Source: Caldimonas mangrovi
Lineage (GTDB): Bacteria; Pseudomonadota; Gammaproteobacteria; Burkholderiales; Burkholderiaceae_C
DNA length: 64,000 nt
Assembly: GCF_023721835.1 (NCBI RefSeq)
Contig: NZ_JAMKFE010000003.1
Span: 372,001 to 436,000 of the forward strand
Direction of reading: 5' to 3'
Shown here: in pieces, positions 3,541 to 32,350 of the stretch
How the letters are laid out: each line of letters starts with the position of its first letter
How positions within the stretch are numbered: the stretch's first letter is position 1
Position numbers and translations under genes: made by a program
Notes under the pieces: model-generated
Database searches by the model: none
Told to the model about the DNA's origin: nothing
What the model saw: the letters and a program-made list of their open reading frames with translations, nothing else

Positions 3541-3945
3541 ATGAAACCGAAACTCAGCCTGGTCACCCTCGGTGTCGCGGATTTCGCTCGCTCGGTGGCC
3601 TTCTATCGCGACGGCCTCGGATGGGCGTTGCACGAAGCGAGCAATGACAGCGTCGCCTTCTTCGTCGTCGGCGAGCGGGTGATGTTCGGCCTGTTCGGTC
3701 GCGATGCGCTGGCCGAGGATGCCGGCGTCGATGCCGCGGGCGAGGGCTTCCGTGGCGTCGCGCTGGCGCACAACGTCGGCTCGCCGGCCGAGGTGGACGC
3801 CACGCTGGCCGAGGCGGTGCGCGCAGGCGCCACACTGGTCAAGGCCGGCGAGCCGGTCTTCTGGGGCGGCTACCGTGGCTATTTCGCGGACCCCGAAGGC
3901 CTGCTCTGGGAAGTGGCGCACAACCCCTACATGGATCTCACCTGA
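3541..3945 (+). CDS. VOC (glyoxalase/bleomycin-resistance fold) family protein
   Basis: A 134-aa protein with the paired beta-alpha-beta-beta-beta modules of vicinal oxygen chelate proteins. It starts with LVTLGVADFARSVAFYRDGLGW and ends with the second-module signature YFADPEGLLWEVAHNP. These are the usual hallmarks of glyoxalase-like proteins, but the exact metal ligands and substrate are not evident. The TGA overlaps the ATG of the next gene (TGATG at 3943-3947), so the two are translationally coupled. The functional link to heptose biosynthesis is unclear. Confidence 0.82.
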   Translation: MKPKLSLVTLGVADFARSVAFYRDGLGWALHEASNDSVAFFVVGERVMFGLFGRDALAEDAGVDAAGEGFRGVALAHNVGSPAEVDATLAEAVRAGATLVKAGEPVFWGGYRGYFADPEGLLWEVAHNPYMDLT

Positions 3946-4430
3946 TGTCTGCCGCTGCGCTCACGTTCCTCGACAAGCTGTGCCCGCCCGAGGAACTGGT
4001 GCAGGCCCTGGCGCGCCTGCCCCGACCGCTGGTCTTCACGAACGGCGTGTTCGACATCCTGCACCGTGGGCACGTGACCTACCTCGCGCAGGCGCGTGGA
4101 CTGGGCGGCAGCCTGGTGCTCGGCCTGAACAGCGACGCCTCGGCCCGAGGGCTGGGCAAGGGGCCCGACCGGCCGCTGAACCCCGAAGCCGACCGAGCCT
4201 GCGTACTCGCCGCGCTCGAAAGCGTGAACCTCGTGACGCTGTTCGACGAGCCGACACCGCTCGGGCTGCTGCGGCGGGTGCGACCCGACGTGTATGTGAA
4301 GGGCGGCGACTATGACATCGAGTCGCTGGCCGAAACGGCGTTGGTGCGCTCGTGGGGGGGGCAAGCCTGCGCCATCCCGTTTGTCGACGGCTATTCGACC
4401 ACGGCGCTGGTCAAGCGGATCCGCGGTTGA
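3945..4430 (+). CDS. rfaE2: D-glycero-beta-D-manno-heptose 1-phosphate adenylyltransferase
   Basis: A 161-aa cytidylyltransferase-fold enzyme that makes ADP-heptose for the lipopolysaccharide inner core. The HxGH nucleotide-binding motif appears in TNGVFDILHRGHVTYL near residues 31-46, and the lysine/glycine stretch VYVKGGDYD and the GYSTTALVKRI tail match the RfaE/HldE C-terminal domain. Only the adenylyltransferase half is encoded here, so the heptose kinase must be a separate gene elsewhere. This split is usual in Burkholderiales. The last 20 bp overlap the end of the convergent rhombosortase gene. Confidence 0.9.
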   Translation: MSAAALTFLDKLCPPEELVQALARLPRPLVFTNGVFDILHRGHVTYLAQARGLGGSLVLGLNSDASARGLGKGPDRPLNPEADRACVLAALESVNLVTLFDEPTPLGLLRRVRPDVYVKGGDYDIESLAETALVRSWGGQACAIPFVDGYSTTALVKRIRG

Positions 4431-16886: not shown

Positions 16887-18104
16887 CTATCGCTTGCCGA
16901 ACATCATCTGGCGTGCGAGCAGGGACTTGGCCGGCCCGAGCCGTTGCAGCGCTGCCAACCCCAGGCCGCGTGCCGTGCCGAACCCCGGCAACTGCCACGT
17001 GAAGCTGCGAGCGAGGAAGTCGGTCGCAGCGATCGTTCCCCAGCGGTCCGGCGCGCGGCGCAGCTCGAGGTTGCGCAATGCGGCGTCGATGCCCGCTTCG
17101 CGCCCCAGCAGTCTCACCAGCTCGAAGGCGTCGCGCAGGCCGAGATTCAGGCCCTGGCCGGCGACCGGGTGCAGGGTCTGCGCGGCGTTGCCGATGCGCA
17201 CGGTGCGTCCCTGCACCAGCGTGCGCTCGGCATTGAGACCGAGCGCGAACTGCTTCAGCGGCGTGATGCCGGTGATGCGGCCGACGCGAGGGTGGAACAC
17301 GTGGTTCAGTACCGCGACACGCTGGCTGTCGTCCAACTCTCGCACCGGGTCGTCGTCGCGGGGAACACACCACACCAGTGCAGCGCGGGGACCACCAGCG
17401 CCTGCGGGCAGCGGCAGCAGCGCCGCCGGCCCATGGGCCGTGAAGCGCTCGAAGGCCATGCCGGGCGGCGGGCCGTCGACGTTCACCTGCCCGACCCAGG
17501 CGGTCTGGCGATAGTCGTGCGTCAGCGACTTGCGCGCCTGGTCGGCGAACACGCCGCCTTCCGCCACCACCACGAGGTCGAAGCGTTCGGCGATGCCGGC
17601 ATCGACCTCGACGCCGCCGTCGACGGCCTTCAGGTCGGCGACCTTGACACCGAAGCGTGTCGTCAGCCGGGCGGGCTGCAGGGCTGACGCGTCCAGCCAG
17701 GCCTGCTGCATCGGTGCCACCAGACTGCCATAGGTCAAAACGGCGCCCAGCATCGGCACGCCCTCGCGAGCGGCTTCGATCGTCACTTCCGGTTCGCCCC
17801 AGCGCGCCAGCAGCGGCGCCGGTTGCTGCTGCGAGACGTGCACGGCGAGGATAGGCTGGGCGTCGGCGGCCGGCCAGCAGCCGAGCCGCCGAAGTAGCTG
17901 CACACTGCCAAGCGACAGCGCCAGCGTGCGGGGGTCGCGGCCGATGTCGACCTCATGCGTACGCGCGTCGAAGAGAGTGATGCAAGCCTCGGGCAGTTCG
18001 CGGCTGGCAATCAGAGCGAGCGCCAGGCCGGCGGGGCCGGCGCCGACGACGGCGATGCGCGGCCCGTTGACGGCTGAAGAGGGAGGCAGGTCAAGTGTGG
18101 CCAT
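16887..18104 (-). CDS. FAD-dependent UbiH/UbiF/COQ6-type hydroxylase
   Basis: A 405-aa aromatic-ring monooxygenase of the ubiquinone-biosynthesis family. The N-terminal dinucleotide motif VVGAGPAGLALALIA is near residues 20-34, GRDPRTLALS follows, and the second FAD motif appears as IGNAAQTLHPVAGQGLNLGLRD, where most relatives have GDAAH. These match UbiH/UbiF/VisC proteins, which hydroxylate the benzoquinone ring. Which ring carbon is modified cannot be told. The start is ATG 18104, and an in-frame ATG at 18116 would add four residues. It is divergent from the PEP-CTERM gene and convergent with the sensor kinase gene. Confidence 0.85.
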   Translation of the reverse strand: MATLDLPPSSAVNGPRIAVVGAGPAGLALALIASRELPEACITLFDARTHEVDIGRDPRTLALSLGSVQLLRRLGCWPAADAQPILAVHVSQQQPAPLLARWGEPEVTIEAAREGVPMLGAVLTYGSLVAPMQQAWLDASALQPARLTTRFGVKVADLKAVDGGVEVDAGIAERFDLVVVAEGGVFADQARKSLTHDYRQTAWVGQVNVDGPPPGMAFERFTAHGPAALLPLPAGAGGPRAALVWCVPRDDDPVRELDDSQRVAVLNHVFHPRVGRITGITPLKQFALGLNAERTLVQGRTVRIGNAAQTLHPVAGQGLNLGLRDAFELVRLLGREAGIDAALRNLELRRAPDRWGTIAATDFLARSFTWQLPGFGTARGLGLAALQRLGPAKSLLARQMMFGKR

Positions 18105-18275: not shown

Positions 18276-18776
18276 ATGAAGTTCAAATCGATCGTTGCGT
18301 CCACCGTGGTCGCGTTTGCGGGCGTCGGTCTCGCGCCTGCGGCGCATGCCGACGACCTCGGCCTGATTGGCTCGGCCTGGACCTGGTTCGGCAACTCGTT
18401 CGGCCGCACCCTGGCGAGCTTTACCGACTACTACACCTTCGAGGTAGATGGGACGTCGGGAGTCGTGGGCGGCACGCTCGAGCTCGATTTGGGCAAGCTC
18501 TACAACGTCAACGTGGCCTCGGTCAGCCTGAGCGGTGAAAGCCTGTCCGGCGATCTGGTCGACTTCGACCCGTCCAACGGCTTCACTTTCAGCAATCTGC
18601 TGGCCGGGTCCTACACCATGACCGTGAGCGGGAGCGCGCCCGGCGCCTTCGGCGGCTCCTATGTGGGTGCACTGCACGCCATCGCTTCGCCCGCACCCGA
18701 GCCAGAGGTCTACGCCATGGCCGCACTCGGCCTGCTCGGTGTCGGCTTCGCCGCCCGGCGTCGCAAGTCGCGCTGA
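18276..18776 (+). CDS. FxDxF-type PEP-CTERM sorting-domain protein
   Basis: A 166-aa exported protein. It has a signal peptide (ending near ...APAAHADD), a beta-rich body starting with SFTDYYTFEVDG (the FxDxxxF motif of one PEP-CTERM subfamily) and a C-terminal sorting tail: PAPEPEVYAM, a hydrophobic helix and the basic end AARRRKSR. PEP-CTERM tails are recognised by exosortases, and an exosortase gene (xrtB) lies about 1 kb downstream. The ATG at 18276 follows a purine-rich site (AAAGGGAGAGG), and an in-frame start at 18231 adds 15 residues that spoil the signal peptide. Its role outside the cell is unknown. Confidence 0.88.
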   Translation: MKFKSIVASTVVAFAGVGLAPAAHADDLGLIGSAWTWFGNSFGRTLASFTDYYTFEVDGTSGVVGGTLELDLGKLYNVNVASVSLSGESLSGDLVDFDPSNGFTFSNLLAGSYTMTVSGSAPGAFGGSYVGALHAIASPAPEPEVYAMAALGLLGVGFAARRRKSR

Positions 18777-18866
18777 TCCTCGGTTTCGCGCCACTTCGTT
18801 CCACGCGGCCGCGACTGGGCACTGCGCTCAGTCCCGGCCGTTCGTCTTTCCACGGATCCGCTGCCC

Positions 18867-19736
18867 ATGCCTGCCATCGCACGCGTCGTTTCCCGCCCGG
18901 TATTGACGGGCCTGATGTTGCTGAGCCTGGCCCTGCTCGCCGCCTGCGGCGGCGGCACCAAGCCCGCTCAGCCGACGCAGGTCGCGGCCAAGGTGAACGA
19001 CGGCGAGATCTCGGTGCACCAGGTGCAACTGGTGCTCAGGCGCAACCCGCGGCTGGTGGCCGAGCACCGCGAAGCGGCCGGGCGCAAGGCGCTGGACAAC
19101 CTCGTCGAGCAGGAACTCGCGGCGCAGGCGGCCCGTGAGGCGGGGCTGGAAACGGCGCCCGACGTGATCCAGTCCATCGAGGCGGCCAAGCGCGAGGCGC
19201 TTGCCCGTGCCTGGCAGGACCGGCTGGCCGAACGGGCCACGGCGGCCAGCACGGACGAGGTCGAGCGCTACTACGACGAGCATCCCGCACTGTTCGCGAA
19301 GCGGCAGATCTACAGCGTGCAGGAGTACGCCGTGCAAGTGGCCGGCGAGCAGCAGGCCGCAGTGGTCGCCGCGATCGATGCGACCCGCAGCCCACAGGAA
19401 CTGCGTGACGTGCTGAACGCACGCGGACTGCGCTTCAACGCCCGCCCGCTGGTGCTGCCGGCAGAAGGCGTGCCGCTGCCGGTGCTCGACAAGTTGGCGG
19501 CAGCGTCGCCCGGCCTGTCGGTGGTCGATGTTCGGCCCGCGGCTCTGCAGATCCTGCATCTGGTCGCAGCGCAACCAGCGCCGCTCGAGCGTGCGCAGGC
19601 ACGCAGCGCGATCGAGGCCTTTCTGCTCAACGAGCGCCGGCGCCAGCAGGTCGAACAGGGCATGACCCGTCTGCGCCAGGCCGCGCGCGTCGAATACGTC
19701 GGCAGCTTTGCGGCTGCCGCGTCTGCGGCGCAGTGA
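18867..19736 (+). CDS. epsD: EpsD family peptidyl-prolyl cis-trans isomerase lipoprotein
   Basis: A 289-aa exported lipoprotein with lipobox LLAAC (Cys near residue 28), followed by SurA-type N-terminal helices (VAAKVNDGEISVHQVQLVLR) and a PpiC-like segment from about residue 145. In exosortase/exopolysaccharide loci this family is called EpsD. It is the first gene of a three-gene coupled unit with xrtB and epsI. Its TGA overlaps the likely GTG start of xrtB. It may help fold exported proteins or the sorting machinery, which is inferred from gene order. No polysaccharide biosynthesis genes are adjacent, unlike classic eps clusters. Confidence 0.84.
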   Translation: MPAIARVVSRPVLTGLMLLSLALLAACGGGTKPAQPTQVAAKVNDGEISVHQVQLVLRRNPRLVAEHREAAGRKALDNLVEQELAAQAAREAGLETAPDVIQSIEAAKREALARAWQDRLAERATAASTDEVERYYDEHPALFAKRQIYSVQEYAVQVAGEQQAAVVAAIDATRSPQELRDVLNARGLRFNARPLVLPAEGVPLPVLDKLAAASPGLSVVDVRPAALQILHLVAAQPAPLERAQARSAIEAFLLNERRRQQVEQGMTRLRQAARVEYVGSFAAAASAAQ

Positions 19737-20656
19737 GGCCGGGGCGAGAGCCCGAAATGCAACCGGCTGCCGACTCCACCCTCGAACACCGTGCGGCCTT
19801 GCGGCCGTCTCGGCTGGCGGGCGGCATGGACGCGCCCTCGCTGTGGCTCGTCGTCGCCGGGCTGGGCGCGCTGTTCGGGCCCACGTACTGGGACCTGGCC
19901 TACGGCCGCTATGCCGGCTACAGCCAGGGCTACGAATTCCTCGCGCTGATCGTCAGCGGCTGGCTGCTGTTTCGCCGCCGTGAAGATGTCGCCGCGTTGC
20001 CCACCGTCGGCTCGCGCGGCGCGGCGGTGGCCCTCGGCATCGCGCTCGTGGTCTACGCATTTGCTCGCAGCCAGCAACTGCTGCGCATCGAAATGGCGGC
20101 GCTCGTGTTCGCGTTCGCGAGCCTGCTCGTGTGCGTCAAGGGCTGGGCGGCGCTGCGCCGGCTGTGGTTTCCGGTGTTCTTCCTGCTGTTCACGATCCCG
20201 CTGCCGTACTCGCTGGTGCTGCAGCTGACCGGCCCGATGAAAACGGCCGTTTCGGTGATCGCGACCTGGCTGTTGCAGGCGGCCGGTTACCCGGTGGGTC
20301 GCTCGGGCGTGGTCATCACCGCCGGGCAATACCAGTTGCTGGTGGCGGAAGCCTGCGCCGGCCTGCAGACGATGTTCACGCTCGAAGCGATGGGCTTGCT
20401 CTACGCGAACCTGATGGGCTACGGCGCCTGGCTGCGCAACGTGCTGTTGAGCGTTGCGGTGGTGCCGATGGCCTTTTTCGCGAATGTCGTGCGGGTGCTG
20501 CTGATCGTGCTGATCACCTACCACTTCGGCGACGAGGCCGGGCAGGGCTTCATCCACGGCTTCGCCGGGCTGGCGCTGTTCGCGGCGGCGCTGGCGGCGA
20601 TCGTCGGCGTCGACGCGTTGTTCGGCCGCGTGTTGCCGGATCGGCAGGTGCGATGA
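19733..20656 (+). CDS. xrtB: exosortase B (XrtB)
   Basis: A 307-aa polytopic membrane protein with about eight hydrophobic helices. The exosortase catalytic residues are all visible: cysteine in VAEACAGLQTMF (Cys208 from the GTG start), arginine in FFANVVRVLLIV (Arg254) and histidine in GFIHGFAGL (His275). Exosortases cut PEP-CTERM tails in the inner membrane and pass the protein outward. The short GTG start overlaps the epsD stop (GTGA), and an ATG at 19757 is an alternative. The epsI gene overlaps its end (ATGA). The XrtB assignment, rather than XrtA, rests on the epsD/epsI neighbourhood and should be tested. Confidence 0.87.
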   Translation: MRPGREPEMQPAADSTLEHRAALRPSRLAGGMDAPSLWLVVAGLGALFGPTYWDLAYGRYAGYSQGYEFLALIVSGWLLFRRREDVAALPTVGSRGAAVALGIALVVYAFARSQQLLRIEMAALVFAFASLLVCVKGWAALRRLWFPVFFLLFTIPLPYSLVLQLTGPMKTAVSVIATWLLQAAGYPVGRSGVVITAGQYQLLVAEACAGLQTMFTLEAMGLLYANLMGYGAWLRNVLLSVAVVPMAFFANVVRVLLIVLITYHFGDEAGQGFIHGFAGLALFAAALAAIVGVDALFGRVLPDRQVR

Positions 20657-21345
20657 GCCGGTCGCGCCGCCTGGCCCTGGGACTGGCCGCCGCCATGGCA
20701 GGCGCAGCGCTGCTGGCGGCAGTTGCACGGCCCACCGCGCGCATCGACGAGGCCCGCGCGTCGCAGCGGCTCGAAGACCTGTTTCCGCGCACCGTCGGCG
20801 CGTGGCGTGTCGACGAGCTTCATCGTGCGCTGGTGCGACCGGCCGAAGGCGGCGACAAGGCGTACGGCGTGTACGACCAGGTGCTCGAGCGAACGTATGT
20901 CGACCCCGCAGGACAGCGTGTGATGCTGTCGGCTGCCTATGGGGGAGAACAGTCGGTCGGCCTCGAGATACACCGGCCCGACGCCTGCTATCCGTCCAAT
21001 GGATTTCATATCGACGGCCGGCACGTCGTCGAGCTGGCGGTGGCCGGTCAGGTCATTCCGGTCACCCGGTTGCACGCGCACAAGGTCGGTCGCTCGGAAC
21101 CTCTGACCTATTGGGTCGTGCTCGGCGACGCCGTCGTGGCCGACGGCTGGGAGTTCAGGCTGCGGCAGCTGCAAACCGGTCTGCGAGGCCGTTTGCTCGA
21201 CGGCATGCTGGTGCGGCTGTCGTCGATCGACACCGATGTCGAGCGTGCGTACGAATTGCAGGCACGCTTTGCCGCGGAACTGGCTGCCGCATTGCCGGCA
21301 CCCGCGCGGCAGCGTGTCGTCGGCGACGCCTCGCCGCAGCGTTGA
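20653..21345 (+). CDS. epsI: EpsI family exosortase-associated protein
   Basis: A 230-aa protein with one N-terminal membrane helix or uncleaved signal (residues about 6-24), then a periplasmic domain. The motif RPDACYPSNGFHI near residue 115 holds the conserved Cys-Tyr-Pro of EpsI proteins, often fused to exosortases in other bacteria. Its exact task in protein sorting is not known. It starts with an ATG overlapping the xrtB TGA and ends the coupled epsD-xrtB-epsI unit. No terminator is apparent before the convergent GGDEF gene. Confidence 0.85.
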   Translation: MSRSRRLALGLAAAMAGAALLAAVARPTARIDEARASQRLEDLFPRTVGAWRVDELHRALVRPAEGGDKAYGVYDQVLERTYVDPAGQRVMLSAAYGGEQSVGLEIHRPDACYPSNGFHIDGRHVVELAVAGQVIPVTRLHAHKVGRSEPLTYWVVLGDAVVADGWEFRLRQLQTGLRGRLLDGMLVRLSSIDTDVERAYELQARFAAELAAALPAPARQRVVGDASPQR

Positions 21346-22910: not shown

Positions 22911-24302
22911 TCAGGCCGCGCGCATCAGCGCCTCGATCTCGTCGGCATGCACCGGCACGCCCCGTGTGATCAGCTCGCAGCCCCCGGGCGTCACGACCGC
23001 GTCGTCCTCGATGCGGATGCCGATGTGCCAGTAGCGTTCCGGCACGTCCTCGGCCGGGCGCACATACAGGCCGGGCTCGAGCGTCACGACCATGCCCGGC
23101 TGCAGCACGCGCGACGGTTTCTTGACGACACGCCCGCCCAGGCCGTCGGGCTGCTCGACGGGCGCTTCGTCTTCCTGCACGTAGCTGCCCACGTCGTGCA
23201 CGTCCATGCCGAGCCAGTGGCCGGTGCCATGCATGTAGAACTGGCGGTAGGCGGCCTGTTCGATCACGTCGTCGACGCTGCCGTGCTTGTCGGCGTCGAG
23301 CAGCCCGGTGTCGAGCATCCCCTGCGACAGCACGCGCACGGCCGCATGGTGGGCATCGCGCTGGCGCGCGCCGGGCCGCGTCGCGGCGACGGCGGCCTGC
23401 TGCGCGGCGAGCACGATGTCGTAGAGCTCGCGCTGCGGCGCGGTGTAGCGGCCGTCGAGCGGGAAGGTGCGCGTGATGTCGCTGGCGTAGCCGTCGAACT
23501 CGCAGCCGGCGTCGATCAGGCACAGCTGGCCGGAGCGCAGCTCGGCGTTGCCGGCGGGGTAGTGCAGGATGCACGCGTTGGCGCCGGCCGCGACGATGCT
23601 CGGATAGGCCGGCGACTGGGCGCCGCGGCGGCGGAATTCATGCAGCAGTTCCGCCTCGAGGTGGTACTCGTACCAGCGGCCGTCGAAGGCACTGCGCAGC
23701 CAGCGCGCGCTCTGCTGCATGGCCCGCACGTGCGCGGCAGCCGAGATGCCCGCCGCATGGCGCATCGTCGCCAGCTCGCCGGCGTCCTTGATCACGCGCA
23801 TCTCGTCGAGCACGTGGCACAGGTCGAGCAGTGCGCGCGGCGGCTCCTGCCCCTGGCGCTCGCGCGAGCGCACGGTGGCGATCCAGTGCTCGATGCGGGT
23901 GTCCAGGCCCTCATGGACCCCGAACGGGAACCACACGGCGCCCTGGTTGGCCAGCAGCTGGGGCATCTGATCGTCCAGCGCTTCGACGGCGAAAGCCTGG
24001 TCGACGCCGAGCACCGCCGGGGCGGCGCCTGGCCCCAGGCGCACGCCGTCCCAGATCTCGCGTTCGGTGTCCTTCGCGCGGCAGAACAGCGTGGTGCGCC
24101 CGTGCTCGTCGATCACCAGCCAGCTTTCGGGCTCGCCGAAGCCGCTCAGGTAATGGAAATGGCTGTCGTACCGGTACGGGTAGTGAGAGTCGCGGTTGCG
24201 CGTGCGTTCGGCCGCGGTGGGCAGCACCGCGATGCCGCCGCCGTGCTGGCGCATCGTGTCGGCCACTCGCTGGCGGCGTGCAATGTAGGTTGTGCGGTCC
24301 AT
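22911..24302 (-). CDS. pepP: Xaa-Pro aminopeptidase (aminopeptidase P)
   Basis: A 463-aa cytosolic metallopeptidase that removes N-terminal residues preceding proline. The N-terminal creatinase-like domain starts at RRQRVADTM. The metal-binding residues of the pita-bread catalytic domain are visible: Asp in IDAGCEFDGYASDITR (two Asp), His in MHGTGHWLGMDVHDVG, Glu in TLEPGLYV and Glu in IGIRIEDDAVV. Length fits PepP. It has an ATG start, with a TAGACT hexamer 27 bp upstream that may be its -10 element. The GGDEF gene follows closely on the same strand and may be co-transcribed. Confidence 0.95.
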   Translation of the reverse strand: MDRTTYIARRQRVADTMRQHGGGIAVLPTAAERTRNRDSHYPYRYDSHFHYLSGFGEPESWLVIDEHGRTTLFCRAKDTEREIWDGVRLGPGAAPAVLGVDQAFAVEALDDQMPQLLANQGAVWFPFGVHEGLDTRIEHWIATVRSRERQGQEPPRALLDLCHVLDEMRVIKDAGELATMRHAAGISAAAHVRAMQQSARWLRSAFDGRWYEYHLEAELLHEFRRRGAQSPAYPSIVAAGANACILHYPAGNAELRSGQLCLIDAGCEFDGYASDITRTFPLDGRYTAPQRELYDIVLAAQQAAVAATRPGARQRDAHHAAVRVLSQGMLDTGLLDADKHGSVDDVIEQAAYRQFYMHGTGHWLGMDVHDVGSYVQEDEAPVEQPDGLGGRVVKKPSRVLQPGMVVTLEPGLYVRPAEDVPERYWHIGIRIEDDAVVTPGGCELITRGVPVHADEIEALMRAA

Positions 24303-24485: not shown

Positions 24486-26033
24486 TCAGCCTGCCTCGCA
24501 ATACCGCGGTTCGGACGTGGCCGCAGGCGCCGGCGGCGTTGCGCTCCAGCTCTGAACCGGCGTCACCGTGATGTTGCAGCGCTCGTCGACGGTGAAGTCG
24601 AACGCGCTCCACCAGCCGGTGATGTTGGTTTCACCGGCCGCCGGCGTGAACACCTGGCGTTCGCCTGCCGCGTTCAACTCCACACGCACCGGCGAGCCGG
24701 TCATGCCGGGCGTGTGCGTGCCGTCGTAGTTGTGCACCAGGTAGCGATAGGTGCCGACCATCAGGCGGCGCACGGTCACCACCTCGGGCCCGTAGCTCGT
24801 GACGTCGTCCACGTCCAGGTTGGCCCAGGGCGCGGCCGTCAGCGACCCTTCGTTCTCGAAGTACACGTGAGCGCCGTTCGGCAGGTACAGGTGGGAGTCC
24901 ACGTCTTCCGGCTGCTGGCCCCAGGTCAGCTTCACGCTCACGTTGGACTCGGCGCTGCCGAGCACCAGGCAGTCTTCCAGGGTCACCGCCGCGGCGTGCG
25001 GGCCCACGGTCAGCGTGTTGCTCATGCGCGACTCCAGCGTCGAGGTCAGGATGGCGCGAGCGTTCGGCTTGATCGGGATCGTGAAGTTGCCTTGCGCATC
25101 GGTCAGCACGCTCGAGGTGCCGCTGTAGTCGATGCCCTCGGACGCCACGCGCGCGCCCTCGACCGGCTCGCCGCTTTCATTGCGCAGGCAGCCGGTCACC
25201 TCGATGGCGTCGTAGAGGCTGTCGGCGTTCCAGACGCTGAAGTGGCTCACGGTGCCTTCATAGTAGGTGCCGTCTCCCGACAGCACGGCAGTGCCTTCCT
25301 CGACCCAGTAGCCGGTGTCTTCGTCGAAGTGGAACAGCGGCACGGTGGCAGGGGGGGCCGGCGCGCGTGTCGCCACCGGGATGCGCACCGTGGCGGTCTG
25401 CCCCTCGGCCAGTTGCAGCTGGCGGCCCTCGGCATCGCGAATGTCGACCGACATCGCACCGAAGCTTTCCATCGGGCGCACGCCGTCATCGGTGCGGGCG
25501 GTGAAGTCGCCCGGCATCAACTCGACGTTGGCGGCCGGGTCGATCGGCGTCAAGCGCACCGTCGCCTGCCCGGTGGCAGCGCGCCCGGCTGGGTCGACCA
25601 GCGCGTTCGCCGCAAGCACCACCTGCGCCGGGCTGCCGGCCACGGTCGCCGTGCCGCCGGTGGCCACGGTGATCAGGCTCTCGCCGGCCACCGGCAGCAA
25701 CTCGGCGTCCACCGTGCTGGTCTCGCCGTCGTCGACCGCCGTGACGCGCATCGCTTCGGCAAAGCCTGCCGCCTCGACGTGCACGACGGCGCGCTCGGTT
25801 TCGTCCACGTCGGTGAGGCGGTAGCGCCCGTCGGCACCGGTGAAGGTGCGCTTGTCGCCGACGCTGACGCGTGCGTCGCTCACCGGCTGCCCGGTGCCGG
25901 CATGCGTCACGCGCCCGCTGACGGTGCCCTCGTCATCGCCGCCCCCGCCGCCGCAGCCCGCCAGTCCGGCGGACAGCACCAGCCATCCCGCCCACCGCGT
26001 CCACGGCGAGCGCGCGCTCGAAATTCGATTCAT
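24486..26033 (-). CDS. lipoprotein with carboxypeptidase-regulatory-like and DUF2135/YfaP-like domains
   Basis: A 515-aa lipoprotein. The signal sequence ends with a lipobox (SAGLAGC, Cys26) followed by a Gly5-Asp-Asp-Glu tether. Next is a carboxypeptidase-regulatory-like beta domain (VSGRVTHAGTGQPVSDARVS), then a middle region with SFGAMSVDIRDAEGRQLQL and FHFDEDTGYWVEEG. A second regulatory-like repeat (VTGCLRNESGEPVEGARVAS) follows. The C-terminal YfaP/DUF2135-like domain has EDVDSHLYLPNG and YGPEVVTVRRLMVGTYRY. A clear paralog is encoded at 27391-28980. Function is unknown. A surface or adhesive role would be a guess. It is divergent from the aldo/keto reductase (291 bp apart) and ends in a strong terminator. 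Confidence 0.75.
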   Translation of the reverse strand: MNRISSARSPWTRWAGWLVLSAGLAGCGGGGGDDEGTVSGRVTHAGTGQPVSDARVSVGDKRTFTGADGRYRLTDVDETERAVVHVEAAGFAEAMRVTAVDDGETSTVDAELLPVAGESLITVATGGTATVAGSPAQVVLAANALVDPAGRAATGQATVRLTPIDPAANVELMPGDFTARTDDGVRPMESFGAMSVDIRDAEGRQLQLAEGQTATVRIPVATRAPAPPATVPLFHFDEDTGYWVEEGTAVLSGDGTYYEGTVSHFSVWNADSLYDAIEVTGCLRNESGEPVEGARVASEGIDYSGTSSVLTDAQGNFTIPIKPNARAILTSTLESRMSNTLTVGPHAAAVTLEDCLVLGSAESNVSVKLTWGQQPEDVDSHLYLPNGAHVYFENEGSLTAAPWANLDVDDVTSYGPEVVTVRRLMVGTYRYLVHNYDGTHTPGMTGSPVRVELNAAGERQVFTPAAGETNITGWWSAFDFTVDERCNITVTPVQSWSATPPAPAATSEPRYCEAG

Positions 26034-27390: not shown

Positions 27391-28980
27391 TCAGGGTGCC
27401 GTGCAGTAGGTCGGCGTCGACGAGCCCGACGGCGCGGGTGCCGAGGGGCTCCACGTGTTGACCGGCGTGATCGAGATGCGGCACTGGGCGTCGACCGTGA
27501 ACGAGAACACCGTCCACCAGTCGTTGCCGGCGGCCTCGCCGCTCGGCGGCGTGAACACGCGCCGGGTCCCGTTGGCATTGAACTCGACACGTACCGGCGA
27601 CTGCGTCATGCCCGGGTCGTAGGTCTCGGAGTAGTTGTTCACGGCGTAGCGGTAGGTGCCGACCATCAGGCGGCGCACCGTGACGACTTCCGGCCCGAAG
27701 CTGGTGGTGTCGTCGACGTCGAGGTTGGCCCACGGGGCAGCGGTCAGCGTGCCTTCGTCCTGGTACCAGATGTGCGAGCCGTCGGGCAGGTAGAGGTGCG
27801 AGTCGACGTCGTCGGGCTCGGCGCCCCAGGTCAGCTTGACGCTGACGGCCGAGGCGGTGCTGCTGAGGGTCAGGCAGGTGCCGAGCGTCGTGGCCGCCGT
27901 GTAGGGGCCGACCGACACCGTATTGGTCACACGTGTGCCGGCCAGCGAAGACAGTGTGGCGCGGCCGTTGTGCTTGATCGCGATCGTGAACTCGCCATTG
28001 GCGTTGGTGGTTGCGCTGGACGTGCCGCTGTAGTCGATGCCGTCGGAGACGATCCGGATGCCGGAGACCGGCTGGTTGTCCTCGTCGCGCACGCAGCCGG
28101 TCACGTTCACCGACGCATAGAGCCGGTCGGCGTTCCAGGTGCTGAAGTGCGACACGGTCCCCTCGTAATAGGTGCCGTTGCCGCCCAGCGTCGCGCTGCC
28201 TTCTTCTTCCCAGCGCCCGGTGCTCTCGTTGAAATGGAACAGCGGAATGGTGTTCGGCGACGTGGCCGAACGGGTGGCGACCGGGATGCGGATGGTCGCG
28301 GTCTGGCCCTGCGCCAGGTTCAGGCGGTCGCCGGCACTGGAGCGGATGTCCACCCGCATCGCGCCGAAGCTTTCCAGCGGCTGCACGCCGTTGGGCGTGC
28401 TGGCGGTGAAGTCGCCGGGCATCAGGTCGACGTTCACGGCCGGGTCGATCGGCGTCAGCTCGACGCTGGCTTGCCCGGTGGCCGGCGTGCCGTCGGCGGC
28501 CACCAGCGCGTTGGCCGGCAGCACCACCCGGGCCGGGGTGCCGGGCACCGTCGCCGTGCCGCCGGTGGACACCGTGATGACGCTCTCATGGGCGACGGGC
28601 AGCAGTTCGGCGGTGATCGAGCGCGATGCGCCGTCCACCACCGGCGTGATCCGGAAAGTGGCTGCGTAGCCCGGTGCTTCCACCTGAGCGACGGCACGAT
28701 CGGCAGCCGCCACCTCGGGCAGCGTGAAGCTGCCGTCGGCACCGGTCTGCGTGCTGTACTCGCCGATCGTGACCGAGGCATTGGCCAGCGGGTTGCCGGT
28801 GGCCGCGTTGATGACAGTGCCCGTCACCGTGCCAACCGAAGCCGGGGGGTCGACGGGATCGCCGCCGTCGTCATCGTCATTGCCGCCGCCACCGCCGCCG
28901 CAGGCGGCAAGGCCGATCGTCATGGCTGCCGCCAGGGCCCACAGCCGCCACGGCTTGTGTGTCTTCTGTGCTGTTCGCAT
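27391..28980 (-). CDS. lipoprotein with carboxypeptidase-regulatory-like and DUF2135/YfaP-like domains (paralog)
   Basis: A 529-aa lipoprotein with the same domain order as the gene at 24486-26033 and strong residue similarity along its whole length. Lipobox TIGLAAC is followed by a Gly6-Asn-Asp4 tether. Then come VTGTVINAATGNPLANASVT, the middle SFGAMRVDIRSSAGDRLNL and FHFNESTGRWEEEG, a second repeat (VTGCVRDEDNQPVSGIRIVS) and DDVDSHLYLPDG near the C-terminus. The ATG at 28980 begins a good signal peptide, and the open frame upstream to 29178 is not signal-like. The pair looks like an old tandem duplication now separated by an aldo/keto reductase gene. Function unknown. Confidence 0.75.
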   Translation of the reverse strand: MRTAQKTHKPWRLWALAAAMTIGLAACGGGGGGNDDDDGGDPVDPPASVGTVTGTVINAATGNPLANASVTIGEYSTQTGADGSFTLPEVAAADRAVAQVEAPGYAATFRITPVVDGASRSITAELLPVAHESVITVSTGGTATVPGTPARVVLPANALVAADGTPATGQASVELTPIDPAVNVDLMPGDFTASTPNGVQPLESFGAMRVDIRSSAGDRLNLAQGQTATIRIPVATRSATSPNTIPLFHFNESTGRWEEEGSATLGGNGTYYEGTVSHFSTWNADRLYASVNVTGCVRDEDNQPVSGIRIVSDGIDYSGTSSATTNANGEFTIAIKHNGRATLSSLAGTRVTNTVSVGPYTAATTLGTCLTLSSTASAVSVKLTWGAEPDDVDSHLYLPDGSHIWYQDEGTLTAAPWANLDVDDTTSFGPEVVTVRRLMVGTYRYAVNNYSETYDPGMTQSPVRVEFNANGTRRVFTPPSGEAAGNDWWTVFSFTVDAQCRISITPVNTWSPSAPAPSGSSTPTYCTAP

Positions 28981-29057
28981 TCGTTTGCCTTGCTGAATCC
29001 GGGTTGAAGCTGCCGCTGCGGTCGTCGCTGCCCGTCGAGCGGCCGGGAAGATAGGCA

Positions 29058-29074
29058 GGTAACTTATGGTTACC
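29058..29074. promoter_or_regulatory. GGTAAC-N5-GTTACC dyad in a divergent promoter region
   Basis: A perfect 6-bp inverted repeat with a 5-bp centre lies 78 bp upstream of the lipoprotein gene at 28980 (minus) and 204 bp upstream of the beta-propeller gene at 29278 (plus). Its size and spacing fit a small dimeric operator. The rest of the 297-bp region shows no other signal that I can support. Confidence 0.35.
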
Positions 29075-29277
29075 CGCCGCTCGCGGACGATAGCGAATTG
29101 CGTGTCCTGCGGCTTCGACCATTTGGCCGAAGCAACGGCGTAGCGGAACCGTGGTAGCTCACGGGGACGGCGCGCCACACGCTGCGCAGGTTCGACCCGG
29201 ACCCGCGCTCGGGTTCATCGCACTGTCACGAGGCCTTCCAACAATCGGGCGCTTTTGGGCCGGATACAGGAAGAAAC

Positions 29278-30905: not shown

Positions 30906-31604
30906 TCAACGGGGCTCGGCGTCCGGCACGCGCGCCTGTCTGAGCGCCTTCAGGCGCTCGCGCAACTCGCGCTCGGACGGGTCGATCGGCGGCTTGCCGG
31001 CGCGCTTGCGTTCGTTGGCGACGCGATGGCGCAGGTCTTCGACTTGCTGCATCTGCAGCCGCACGAAGTTAGCGACGTTCTCGACCTTGCCCAAGCCGCC
31101 CGGCACGCCGGTGCGGGGCAGCTTGACGGCCTTGCCGTCGTCCGTTTCCAGTGCCAGATAGCAGGCGCCGAAGGGGCCGAACATGGCCTTTTCGTGGACG
31201 TGCACCTCCGCCAGGTGCGAAACCGGCACGCGGCGAGCCGACTGCTGCCAGCCACGCCGCCAGGTGACGAACTTGACGCTGGCGGCCACCCGCTCCCAGG
31301 TCCACAGGTCCCAGCCGATCGCCGCCAGCCAGGCCAGCGCCGCCAGCCCCGACAGCCACCCGAGGTCGAAGCTCCAGGCGGCCCAGGCCAGGCCGCCGGC
31401 CGCGGCCAGCGCAAGCCACAACGGAATCAGGTCCTTCTCGCCCGGCGTCCAGATCGAGCGCTCGTAGAGGAAGGAGTCGGTGTGCTCGCCCGACAGCGGC
31501 GTTGCCGCCAGCATCACCGCCTTGGCGATGCGCACGATCAGCTGCTCGAGCAGCGCCGCTGCAGCGACGTACGCCAGCAGGGCCCCCAGGGTCGCGAGGT
31601 TCAT
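30906..31604 (-). CDS. membrane protein of unknown function, coupled to murU
   Basis: A 232-aa protein I do not recognise. It has an N-terminal helix (about residues 5-30), two further hydrophobic helices near 68-115, and then a cytosolic-looking half. That half contains a PH-like stretch (VPVSHLAEVHVHEKAMFGPF, ALETDDGKAVKLP) and a strongly charged helical end rich in Arg/Glu. Its ATG overlaps the TGA of the MurU-like gene (ATGA), so it is made together with it. A role near the cell envelope is plausible from that link only. It converges with the beta-propeller gene, with a small GGCCGG/CCGGCC hairpin between. Confidence 0.6.
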   Translation of the reverse strand: MNLATLGALLAYVAAAALLEQLIVRIAKAVMLAATPLSGEHTDSFLYERSIWTPGEKDLIPLWLALAAAGGLAWAAWSFDLGWLSGLAALAWLAAIGWDLWTWERVAASVKFVTWRRGWQQSARRVPVSHLAEVHVHEKAMFGPFGACYLALETDDGKAVKLPRTGVPGGLGKVENVANFVRLQMQQVEDLRHRVANERKRAGKPPIDPSERELRERLKALRQARVPDAEPR

Positions 31605-32350
31605 GGCGCCTCCTTCGGTTCGGGCGGTGGCCGGGAGCCTTCGCCGGCAGCGGCGTTCAGCGCTTCCAGTTGTGCGGGCGTGCCGACGTTCTCCCAGCGG
31701 CCCGGGTAGGCCTCGACGCCGATGCGGCGCTGCCGCATGCCTTCGTAGAGCAAAGGCCCCAGTTGCGCACGCGCACCCGGCTCGATGCCCGCACACAATT
31801 CGGCGCGCAGCAGGGCCAGGTTGCTGTACGTCCAGCGTTTGCCGTCCAGGCCGGAACCATCGGCCATGCCCAGACCGCCAGCGCCGATGCCGAAGTCCCC
31901 GCGAGGATGGAACGGCGGGTTGGGCACCAGCCACAGATGCGCCAGCCGTTCGCTGGCGGCAAAGTGTTGCGCGACCTGTGCGTCGAAGCGGAAATCGGGT
32001 GCGTAAATGTCGCCCGAGATCACCCAGAAACAGTCGCCGAGCCACGGCAGGGCCTTCGCGATGCCGCCGGCGGTCTCCAGCGCGCCGCCGTGATCACGGC
32101 CTTCCATCGAGTAGTGCAGCTTCAGGCCCCAACGCGAGCCGTCGCCGAGGGTGGCGGGAATCTGCTCTTCGAGCCAGGCTGTGTTGATGACGACCTCCTC
32201 GACCCCGTCGCGCGCCAGGGCTTCTAGATGCCAGACGATCAAGGGCTTGCCGGCCACCGGCAGCAGCGGCTTGGGGGTGTGGTCGGTCAGGGGACGCATG
32301 CGTTCGCCGCGCCCGGCCGCCAGCACGATGGCCTTCAGGTTCTTGCTCAT
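31601..32350 (-). CDS. murU: N-acetylmuramate-1-phosphate uridylyltransferase-like nucleotidyltransferase
   Basis: A 249-aa sugar-phosphate nucleotidyltransferase. The N-terminal motif AIVLAAGRGERMRPLTDHTP with KPLLPVAGKPLI is the standard nucleotide/sugar binding signature, and VISGDIYAPDF holds the metal-binding aspartate. Length and overall pattern fit MurU of the peptidoglycan-recycling shortcut, which makes UDP-MurNAc from MurNAc-1-phosphate. The usual partner kinase AmgK is not adjacent. It is divergent from tkt. Alternative substrates (mannose- or glucose-1-phosphate) cannot be excluded by reading alone. Confidence 0.78.
   Translation of the reverse strand: MSKNLKAIVLAAGRGERMRPLTDHTPKPLLPVAGKPLIVWHLEALARDGVEEVVINTAWLEEQIPATLGDGSRWGLKLHYSMEGRDHGGALETAGGIAKALPWLGDCFWVISGDIYAPDFRFDAQVAQHFAASERLAHLWLVPNPPFHPRGDFGIGAGGLGMADGSGLDGKRWTYSNLALLRAELCAGIEPGARAQLGPLLYEGMRQRRIGVEAYPGRWENVGTPAQLEALNAAAGEGSRPPPEPKEAP

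What the first reader, a model, noticed from the sequence alone, without database searches (positions are those of the whole stretch)
18276..21345. Minimal exosortase unit (PEP-CTERM protein, EpsD, XrtB, EpsI) without polysaccharide genes
All catalytic residues of an exosortase are present (Cys208, Arg254, His275), with EpsD and EpsI coupled to it by overlapping codons and one FxDxF-type PEP-CTERM protein just upstream. No glycosyltransferase, Wzx/Wzy or chain-length gene lies on either side, in contrast to typical eps loci. It may be a stand-alone sorting unit, perhaps serving PEP-CTERM proteins elsewhere in the genome.
Basis: partly seen in the sequence, partly recalled or inferred. Interest (0 to 1): 0.6.

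Follow-up and report, generated by a model that had tools for sequence, protein, structure and literature searches.

The report
Self-contained exosortase unit with dedicated cargo
Four neighbouring genes form a small, conserved protein-sorting kit with its own cargo protein, separate from the usual sugar-coat genes, and a few relatives offer an unusually simple setting for finding out what this enzyme family does.

Summary
Window 18276-21345 encodes an FxDxF PEP-CTERM protein, EpsD, exosortase B (XrtB) and type-B EpsI, each over a curated cut-off, with no polysaccharide-cluster gene found beside them. Thirty-eight distinct loci, in several Burkholderiales genera, carry the same order (cargo, EpsD, XrtB, EpsI or an XrtB-EpsI frame) with no hit to my EPS panel. 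Their XrtBs form one clade against 69 other XrtBs (support 100), and close pairs show purifying selection. Two relatives have only two exosortases and two PEP-CTERM proteins over cut-off, one with each enzyme. Best reading: a dedicated, EPS-independent XrtB unit that processes mainly its neighbouring, probably PPC-like secreted protein and a few look-alikes, while the EPS-linked XrtB handles most others. The cargo's sorting signal tends to differ from other signals, clearly in some lineages and only slightly in others. Dedicated sorting pairs are a known idea, so this is a new variant of a known kind. Chemistry, acceptor and surface function are inferred.

The parts
18276..18776 (+). Cargo: FxDxF-family PEP-CTERM protein (166 aa): signal peptide (by eye), beta-sandwich domain resembling PPC, C-terminal sorting signal PAPEPEVYAMAALGLLGVGFAARRRKSR
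   Evidence: NF038126 90 bits; PF07589 23.4 bits; AlphaFold model mean pLDDT 82; nearest solved folds PPC/collagen-binding domains, E 1.4e-3
18867..19736 (+). EpsD-family peptidyl-prolyl isomerase/chaperone, probable lipoprotein (LLAAC lipobox read by eye)
   Evidence: TIGR02925 184 bits, cut-off 109; PF13145 Rotamase_2 32.1 bits, cut-off 27
19733..20656 (+). Exosortase B (XrtB), unit clade; Cys208, Arg254, His275 conserved
   Evidence: TIGR03113 282 bits, cut-off 275; PF09721 209.5 bits; 38 unit XrtBs on one side of a branch, support 100
20653..21345 (+). EpsI type B (DUF3485) exosortase-associated protein
   Evidence: NF045609 233 bits, cut-off 220; fused to XrtB in part of the Aquabacterium lineage
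16887..18104 (-). Flank, not part of the unit: FAD monooxygenase, UbiH type by eye; one side of the slot
   Evidence: in genus mates G002 and G005 it abuts pepP with no unit between
22911..24302 (-). Flank, not part of the unit: Xaa-Pro aminopeptidase (PepP, by eye), beyond a GGDEF gene on the other side of the unit

Best explanation
The four genes are a dedicated, self-contained XrtB sorting unit independent of an EPS cluster. The FxDxF cargo is exported through Sec by its signal peptide and held in the inner membrane by its C-terminal helix and basic tail; lipoprotein EpsD helps it stay or become export-competent in the periplasm; XrtB (Cys208/Arg254/His275), helped by EpsI, cuts at the PEP motif and hands the cargo to an acceptor or releases it, so that a small PPC-like beta-sandwich protein reaches the cell surface or the medium. 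The unit works chiefly on its own neighbour, plus a few proteins with a similar signal; the EPS-linked XrtB on contig C3 handles most of the other PEP-CTERM proteins. Shown by sequence: gene content, recurrence, clade, positions, enzyme and signal counts. Inferred: cleavage, acceptor, roles of EpsD and EpsI, final location, division of labour.
For: (1) Same architecture in 38 distinct loci. Among the 155 XrtB loci annotated (82 and 73, with repeats) every locus with EpsD and XrtB but no panel EPS gene has a PEP-CTERM gene upstream (14 of 14, 34 of 34); 65 of 68 and 38 of 39 others carry panel EPS genes, and none has a real PEP-CTERM gene at that position (five loose-pattern hits were inspected and rejected). 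(2) Unit XrtBs lie on one side of a branch: support 99, 13 against 64 rows; 100, 38 against 69. (3) The window cargo and the 33 others scanned match the FxDxF model at E <= 0.001 (34 of 34; L220 not scanned). (4) G099 and G335: two exosortases each, unit XrtB and XrtQ, and two PEP-CTERM proteins over cut-off, one with each enzyme. (5) G392 has the same two enzymes; besides the XrtQ partner its three PEP-CTERM proteins all carry PAPEP..AM signals, one of them on a protein not over the FxDxF cut-off. (6) dN/dS 0.04-0.15 for XrtB and 0.08-0.27 for cargo in 10 close pairs. (7) Pooled signal counts differ: A before PEP 30 of 38 against 7 of 118; T/S at the second residue after PEP 6 of 38 against 98 of 118; M at the fifth 23 of 38 against 18 of 118.
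Against: No biochemical test. In its own genome the unit is not the only XrtB and the cargo is one of 32 PEP-CTERM proteins. The pooled signal difference leans on related loci: all 23 cargos of the pgm-waaA position have A before PEP, but only 7 of the other 15; in four of the six complete-list genomes with both XrtB kinds the cargo has the usual V there (G074, G082, G116, G204), and PEA also occurs in bulk signals (2 of 11 in G082, 3 of 38 in G247). Shared signals may simply reflect descent. G392 has two extra PEP-CTERM proteins, so pairing is not always one-to-one. Three genus mates with only an EPS-linked XrtB have just 2 to 4 PEP-CTERM proteins, so few clients is not special to the unit. 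The Pfam model misses divergent signals (unit cargos of G116 and G247 are absent from the listing), so 'two PEP-CTERM proteins' in G099/G335 is a count by model.
Confidence: 0.72

Rival explanations
1. General backup enzyme: the unit XrtB processes any PEP-CTERM protein in the cell, the neighbouring cargo being only one of about 31.
For: Both XrtBs belong to one NCBIfam model; all signals share the PEP-helix-basic layout; in four of six genomes with both XrtB kinds the cargo has V before PEP, a residue common in the bulk signals.
Against: Genomes with only unit XrtB plus XrtQ have 2 to 4 PEP-CTERM proteins over cut-off (G099, G335, G392), against 7 to 52 in nine relatives with unit and EPS-linked XrtB, and 4 in G273. 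All 8 genus mates lack the unit; three of these still have 49 to 56 PEP-CTERM proteins, three have 2 to 4 and the two without any exosortase have none.
Confidence: 0.18
2. Degenerate or inactive copy of an EPS-linked XrtB set, left after loss of the polysaccharide genes.
For: A complete epsDEFG-xrtB-epsI cluster exists on contig C3; the window XrtB scores only just over the XrtB cut-off; the unit is missing from 8 of 9 genomes of the genus.
Against: Catalytic residues invariant in 14 of 14; low dN/dS in close pairs; one clade with the same order in 38 loci.
Confidence: 0.04
3. The unit still depends on a polysaccharide or glycolipid made elsewhere in the genome as acceptor, so it is stand-alone in gene order only.
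For: 12 of the 14 unit genomes searched have an EpsF match at E <= 1e-20, 10 of them over cut-off; in 23 of 38 loci the unit follows pgm and waaA, genes of sugar and lipid A-core metabolism.
Against: G335 and G392 have no EpsF match and G099 only one below the cut-off; other polysaccharide pathways were not searched there.
Confidence: 0.3

Closest known systems
PEP-CTERM/EpsH (exosortase) system of Haft et al. 2006 (PMC1569441, passages seen), and the EPS-linked XrtB cluster on contig C3 of this genome
   Same: Same XrtB, EpsI and EpsD families as the C3 cluster, and PEP-CTERM signals
   Different: No panel EPS genes; a cargo gene inside the unit; separate XrtB clade
Dedicated sorting systems as defined by Haft & Varghese 2011 (PMC3237569, passages seen)
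   Same: Enzyme and target encoded together; in G099 and G335 one target per enzyme by model count
   Different: That paper describes rhombosortase/GlyGly-CTERM; here an XrtB with EpsD and EpsI, often in a cell that also has an EPS-linked XrtB
Exosortase Q with its marine_srt_targ-like PEP-CTERM protein (contig C5 here)
   Same: Enzyme and one target adjacent
   Different: Different exosortase family, larger target, no EpsD or EpsI seen beside it in the ORF list
FxDxF PEP-CTERM family (NF038126)
   Same: 34 of 34 unit cargos scanned match at E <= 0.001
   Different: The family is wider than the unit: 5 members over cut-off in this genome, one of them in the unit

Membership tests
Exosortase B (TIGR03113) | Score over curated cut-off | tested here: met
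   282 bits against 275, a narrow pass
Exosortase B (TIGR03113) | Cys/Arg/His catalytic residues | tested here: met
   C208, R254, H275 invariant in 14 of 14; that these three are catalytic is recalled
Exosortase B (TIGR03113) | Cleaves or transfers PEP-CTERM proteins | not testable with these tools
   No experiment
EPS-associated PEP-CTERM/EpsH locus (Haft 2006) | Exosortase gene among exopolysaccharide genes | tested here: not met
   No panel hit in the window outside the unit or in the fetched stretches of unit loci; met by the second XrtB on C3
Dedicated sorting system (Haft & Varghese 2011) | Target encoded next to the enzyme (at most about one gene apart) | tested here: met
   Cargo lies one gene (EpsD) upstream of XrtB in the window; a PEP-CTERM gene lies at that position in 14 of 14 and 34 of 34 unit loci
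Dedicated sorting system (Haft & Varghese 2011) | Single target in the genome | tested here: inconclusive
   By model count met in G099 and G335 once the XrtQ target is set aside; not met by plain count in the window's genome (32 signals)
FxDxF PEP-CTERM protein (NF038126) | Score over curated cut-off | tested here: met
   90 bits against 50
PEP-CTERM domain (TIGR02595) | Score over curated cut-off | tested here: not met
   13.1 against 16; the Pfam model PF07589 is met, 23.4 against 20.7
PPC domain (PF04151) | Sequence and fold match of the cargo | tested here: inconclusive
   13 of 34 cargos match at E <= 1, best 2.9e-5, the window's own not among them; best fold matches E 1.4e-3, target TM 0.74 and 0.64, nothing at E <= 0.001

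The most novel reading that the evidence does not exclude
The unit is a private sorting channel: its XrtB clade reads a distinct signal (in the clearest lineages A-P-E-P/A, no T/S at the next-but-one position, often ..A-M), so that one cell runs two XrtB systems with little cross-talk, one tied to EPS and one not. Odds lowered from 0.40 to 0.33 after a per-lineage recount showed the signal shift to be strong in the pgm-waaA group and patchy elsewhere.
Probability: 0.33. Interest if true: 0.65.

Novelty: new variant of a known kind. Interest (0 to 1): 0.55.

Why it matters
I know of no bacterial exosortase whose chemistry and acceptor are established (recalled), and a sequence search of solved structures gave only short matches to two entries named SAKe6AE and SAKe6AR. 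Many systems have dozens of clients beside an EPS pathway. Genomes such as G099 and G335, with one XrtB, one adjacent cargo and no over-cut-off EpsF, make the question directly testable. Cells with both XrtB kinds allow signal-swap tests of what an exosortase recognises.

Tried and rejected
Degenerate-copy reading: rejected on conservation and dN/dS. EpsI dN/dS in the two Piscinibacter pairs (0.55, 0.74) was set aside because the ORFs used (457 and 510 aa) run far out of the gene; the four clean EpsI pairs give 0.11-0.16. A loose PE[PA] pattern gave five hits at the unit position among the 107 other XrtB loci; all five were rejected on inspection (three overlap EpsE/F/G genes in another frame, one is EpsF itself, one has no hydrophobic helix). 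An RpoN promoter upstream of the cargo was looked for by eye only; none was seen. Solved structures: no useful match to XrtB. Literature: no held paper has XrtB together with exosortase and PEP-CTERM; FxDxF gave 22 papers, none of the 20 listed titles being about PEP-CTERM; 39 papers hold exosortase and PEP-CTERM, 69 hold two of exosortase, EpsI and EpsD (20 listed) and 32 exosortase and archaeosortase (20 listed); I searched passages in three papers and read none whole. The 2012 archaeosortase/exosortase paper by Haft et al. is not held, so 'not described' is only as good as these searches. The single genome-contig scan used A1; no viral or metagenome scan was made.

Limits and rows dropped: units were first recognised by having the cargo and no EPS hit, so the cargo count was restated as 'every EPS-free locus with EpsD and XrtB'; four EPS-free loci without that set are not units (L139, L141, L159, L253). 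The 68 other loci of the first set include the window genome's own C3 locus, from which the panel was taken. Several unit loci are cut by contig ends (for example L086, L221, L225, L239). 80 of 123 other matches were fetched; the 43 not fetched all score below the weakest unit found (L122, E 4.0e-76). In the signal count six rows near or under cut-off were left out, five XrtQ-target signals were excluded, one bulk signal could not be parsed, and the second PEP-CTERM gene of L246 was not counted. The first tree left out five loci by a coordinate filter (L086, L130, L161, L162, C3own). The second left out L139, L141, L154, L157, L159, eleven repeats and L258, and then thinned 138 rows to 107. 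L220 was left out of A3 because its start is not ATG. On checking, odds were changed: best explanation 0.75 to 0.72, backup rival 0.15 to 0.18, novel case 0.40 to 0.33, all because and the low counts in three genus mates.
Full report
What is there. The window carries, on the plus strand, an FxDxF PEP-CTERM protein (18276-18776), EpsD (18867-19736), XrtB (19733-20656) and type-B EpsI (20653-21345), each over a curated cut-off, XrtB only narrowly. The PEP-CTERM motif passes the Pfam model but not TIGR02595. A phmmer panel of 19 EPS-related and unit proteins, without Wzy, found nothing else in the window. By eye the window also holds a sugar nucleotidyltransferase-like gene (31601-32350) and an RfaE-like gene (3945-4430); these are single genes, not an EPS cluster.

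The rest of the genome. Three exosortases exist. Contig C3 has an XrtB (377 bits) inside epsD-epsE-epsF-epsG-xrtB-epsI, followed by sugar-nucleotide and glycosyltransferase genes (the EpsG gene scores 294, under its own cut-off of 314). Contig C5 has XrtQ (342 bits, cut-off 270) next to a marine_srt_targ-like PEP-CTERM protein that scores 440, under its cut-off of 552. Thirty-two PEP-CTERM signals pass the Pfam cut-off and five FxDxF proteins pass theirs.

It does not look like a leftover. Of 399 genomes of the family, 105 match the window XrtB at E <= 1e-60. I fetched 80 of the 123 matches outside the window's genome. Thirteen of these loci, and the window, show the same unit. A scan of named genomes gave 73 relatives, 34 with the unit. 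In nine of the 34 named loci XrtB is read as one frame of 532-574 aa with no separate EpsI hit; three of the same records (L096, L106, L107) were read in full, and by eye XrtB runs on into EpsI. EpsI-exosortase fusions were already noted by Haft 2006 (passage seen). No unit locus has a panel EPS gene in the stretch held, up to 8 or 6 kb on each side and often less; 65 of 68 and 38 of 39 other XrtB loci do.

One clade. Unit XrtBs fall on one side of a branch: 13 against 64 rows, support 99, and 38 against 69, support 100. Both trees are quick searches without bootstrap, and the root is not established. Close pairs show dN/dS of 0.04-0.15 for XrtB and 0.08-0.27 for the cargo.

Position. Of 38 loci, 11 have a UbiH-type gene beside the cargo (window, Piscinibacter, Methylibium, Rhizobacter), 23 have pgm-waaA there (mostly Aquabacterium records), Rivibacter has phoH, and three (L086, L089, L220) match none of these flanks (counted by hand, repeats of one record taken once). 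In the window and in L094 the unit lies between the ubiH-type gene and pepP, which point the other way (in the window a GGDEF gene also lies between). In genus mates G002 and G005 these two genes abut with nothing between; in G001, G007 and G008 pepP is near and the unit absent; in G003, G004 and G006 pepP is not in the stretch fetched. The other eight genomes of the genus hold one exosortase (six, each beside an EpsF gene) or none (two). Shared position across genera suggests an old unit with repeated loss, but transfer with flanks is not excluded.

One enzyme, one cargo. G099 and G335 have exactly two exosortases each, the unit XrtB and an XrtQ (322 and 324 bits, cut-off 270), and two PEP-CTERM proteins over cut-off, one in the unit and one beside XrtQ. 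G335 and G392 have no EpsF match at E <= 1e-20 and G099 one below cut-off. G392, also with unit XrtB and XrtQ only, has two further PEP-CTERM proteins, both with PAPEP..AM signals; one is an FxDxF protein (82 bits), the other is not (23 bits, cut-off 50). G273, which also has an EPS-linked XrtB, has in addition a conventional IPEPQTYALM signal, on an FxDxF protein (65 bits). This is a small but telling series; note that three genus mates with only an EPS-linked XrtB also have just 2 to 4 PEP-CTERM proteins.

Signals. Pooled, 38 unit signals against 118 others from eight genomes more often have A before PEP (30 against 7), less often T/S at the second residue after PEP (6 against 98) and more often M at the fifth (23 against 18). 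The rows are related, so p-values from that call are not to be taken at face value. Split by position, all 23 pgm-waaA cargos have A and none has T/S, 11 have M and 6 have PEA; of the other 15, seven have A, six have T/S and 12 have M. In the six genomes with complete lists (less six rows near cut-off) and both XrtB kinds, the cargo has A before PEP in two (window genome, G247) and V in four; it lacks T/S in four; it has M in five. PEA also occurs in bulk signals of G082 and G247. The shift is therefore clear in some lineages and slight in others. In G116 and G247 the unit cargo is not among the Pfam hits at E <= 0.01, so standard annotation can miss these partners. In the window's genome the closest other signal belongs to another FxDxF protein on contig C10 (score 101, next best 88), a candidate second client.

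The cargo. AlphaFold with 34 sequences gives a mostly confident beta sandwich followed by the C-terminal helix (pLDDT 82, pTM 0.69). The best solved matches are PPC/collagen-binding domains at E 1.4e-3, with none at E <= 0.001 and other beta-sandwich folds close behind; PF04151 matches 13 of 34 cargos weakly. Its role is unknown; PPC-like and jelly-roll domains often bind matrix or sugars (recalled).

How it probably works. Sec export, membrane retention by the PEP-CTERM helix, EpsD as periplasmic helper, XrtB and EpsI cutting at PEP and passing the protein on. Archaeosortase substrates are reported as lipid-anchored (title seen, PMC7157517), but for XrtB neither cut nor acceptor is known to me. 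A PEP-CTERM gene, pepA, is involved in floc formation of Aquincola (title and passages seen, PMC9850573), so such proteins can shape aggregates. Known kind: the idea of a dedicated sorting system is in print (passages seen); the EPS-free XrtB unit with FxDxF cargo was not found in my searches, which cover only the held open-licence papers and mostly their listings.

Noticed in passing
G000 contig C5, L026:9156-14543: Exosortase Q beside a large PEP-CTERM protein, with CreBC two-component genes next door; the signal STPEPAAW recurs beside XrtQ in G099, G335, G273 and G392.
   Followed up: partly
L139 (G066) and L141 (G377): Another XrtB-EpsI pair with no panel EPS hit within 8 kb and no EpsD hit; these fall in the EPS-type part of the tree, so EPS-free XrtB loci may have arisen more than once.
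   Followed up: no
window 24486-26033 and 27391-29178: Two similar large secreted-protein genes on either side of an aldo-keto reductase gene, apparently a duplication (by eye).
   Followed up: no
L230, L235, L236, L238, L245, L285: The unit cargo's motif is PEA instead of PEP; for G247 (same record as L238) the genome scan with the Pfam model did not list it.
   Followed up: partly
G001:C1:757907-758818 (L161) and G146:C1:1936627-1937490 (L162): XrtB matches with one TGA inside the aligned stretch; in G001 the Pfam domain part is open.
   Followed up: no
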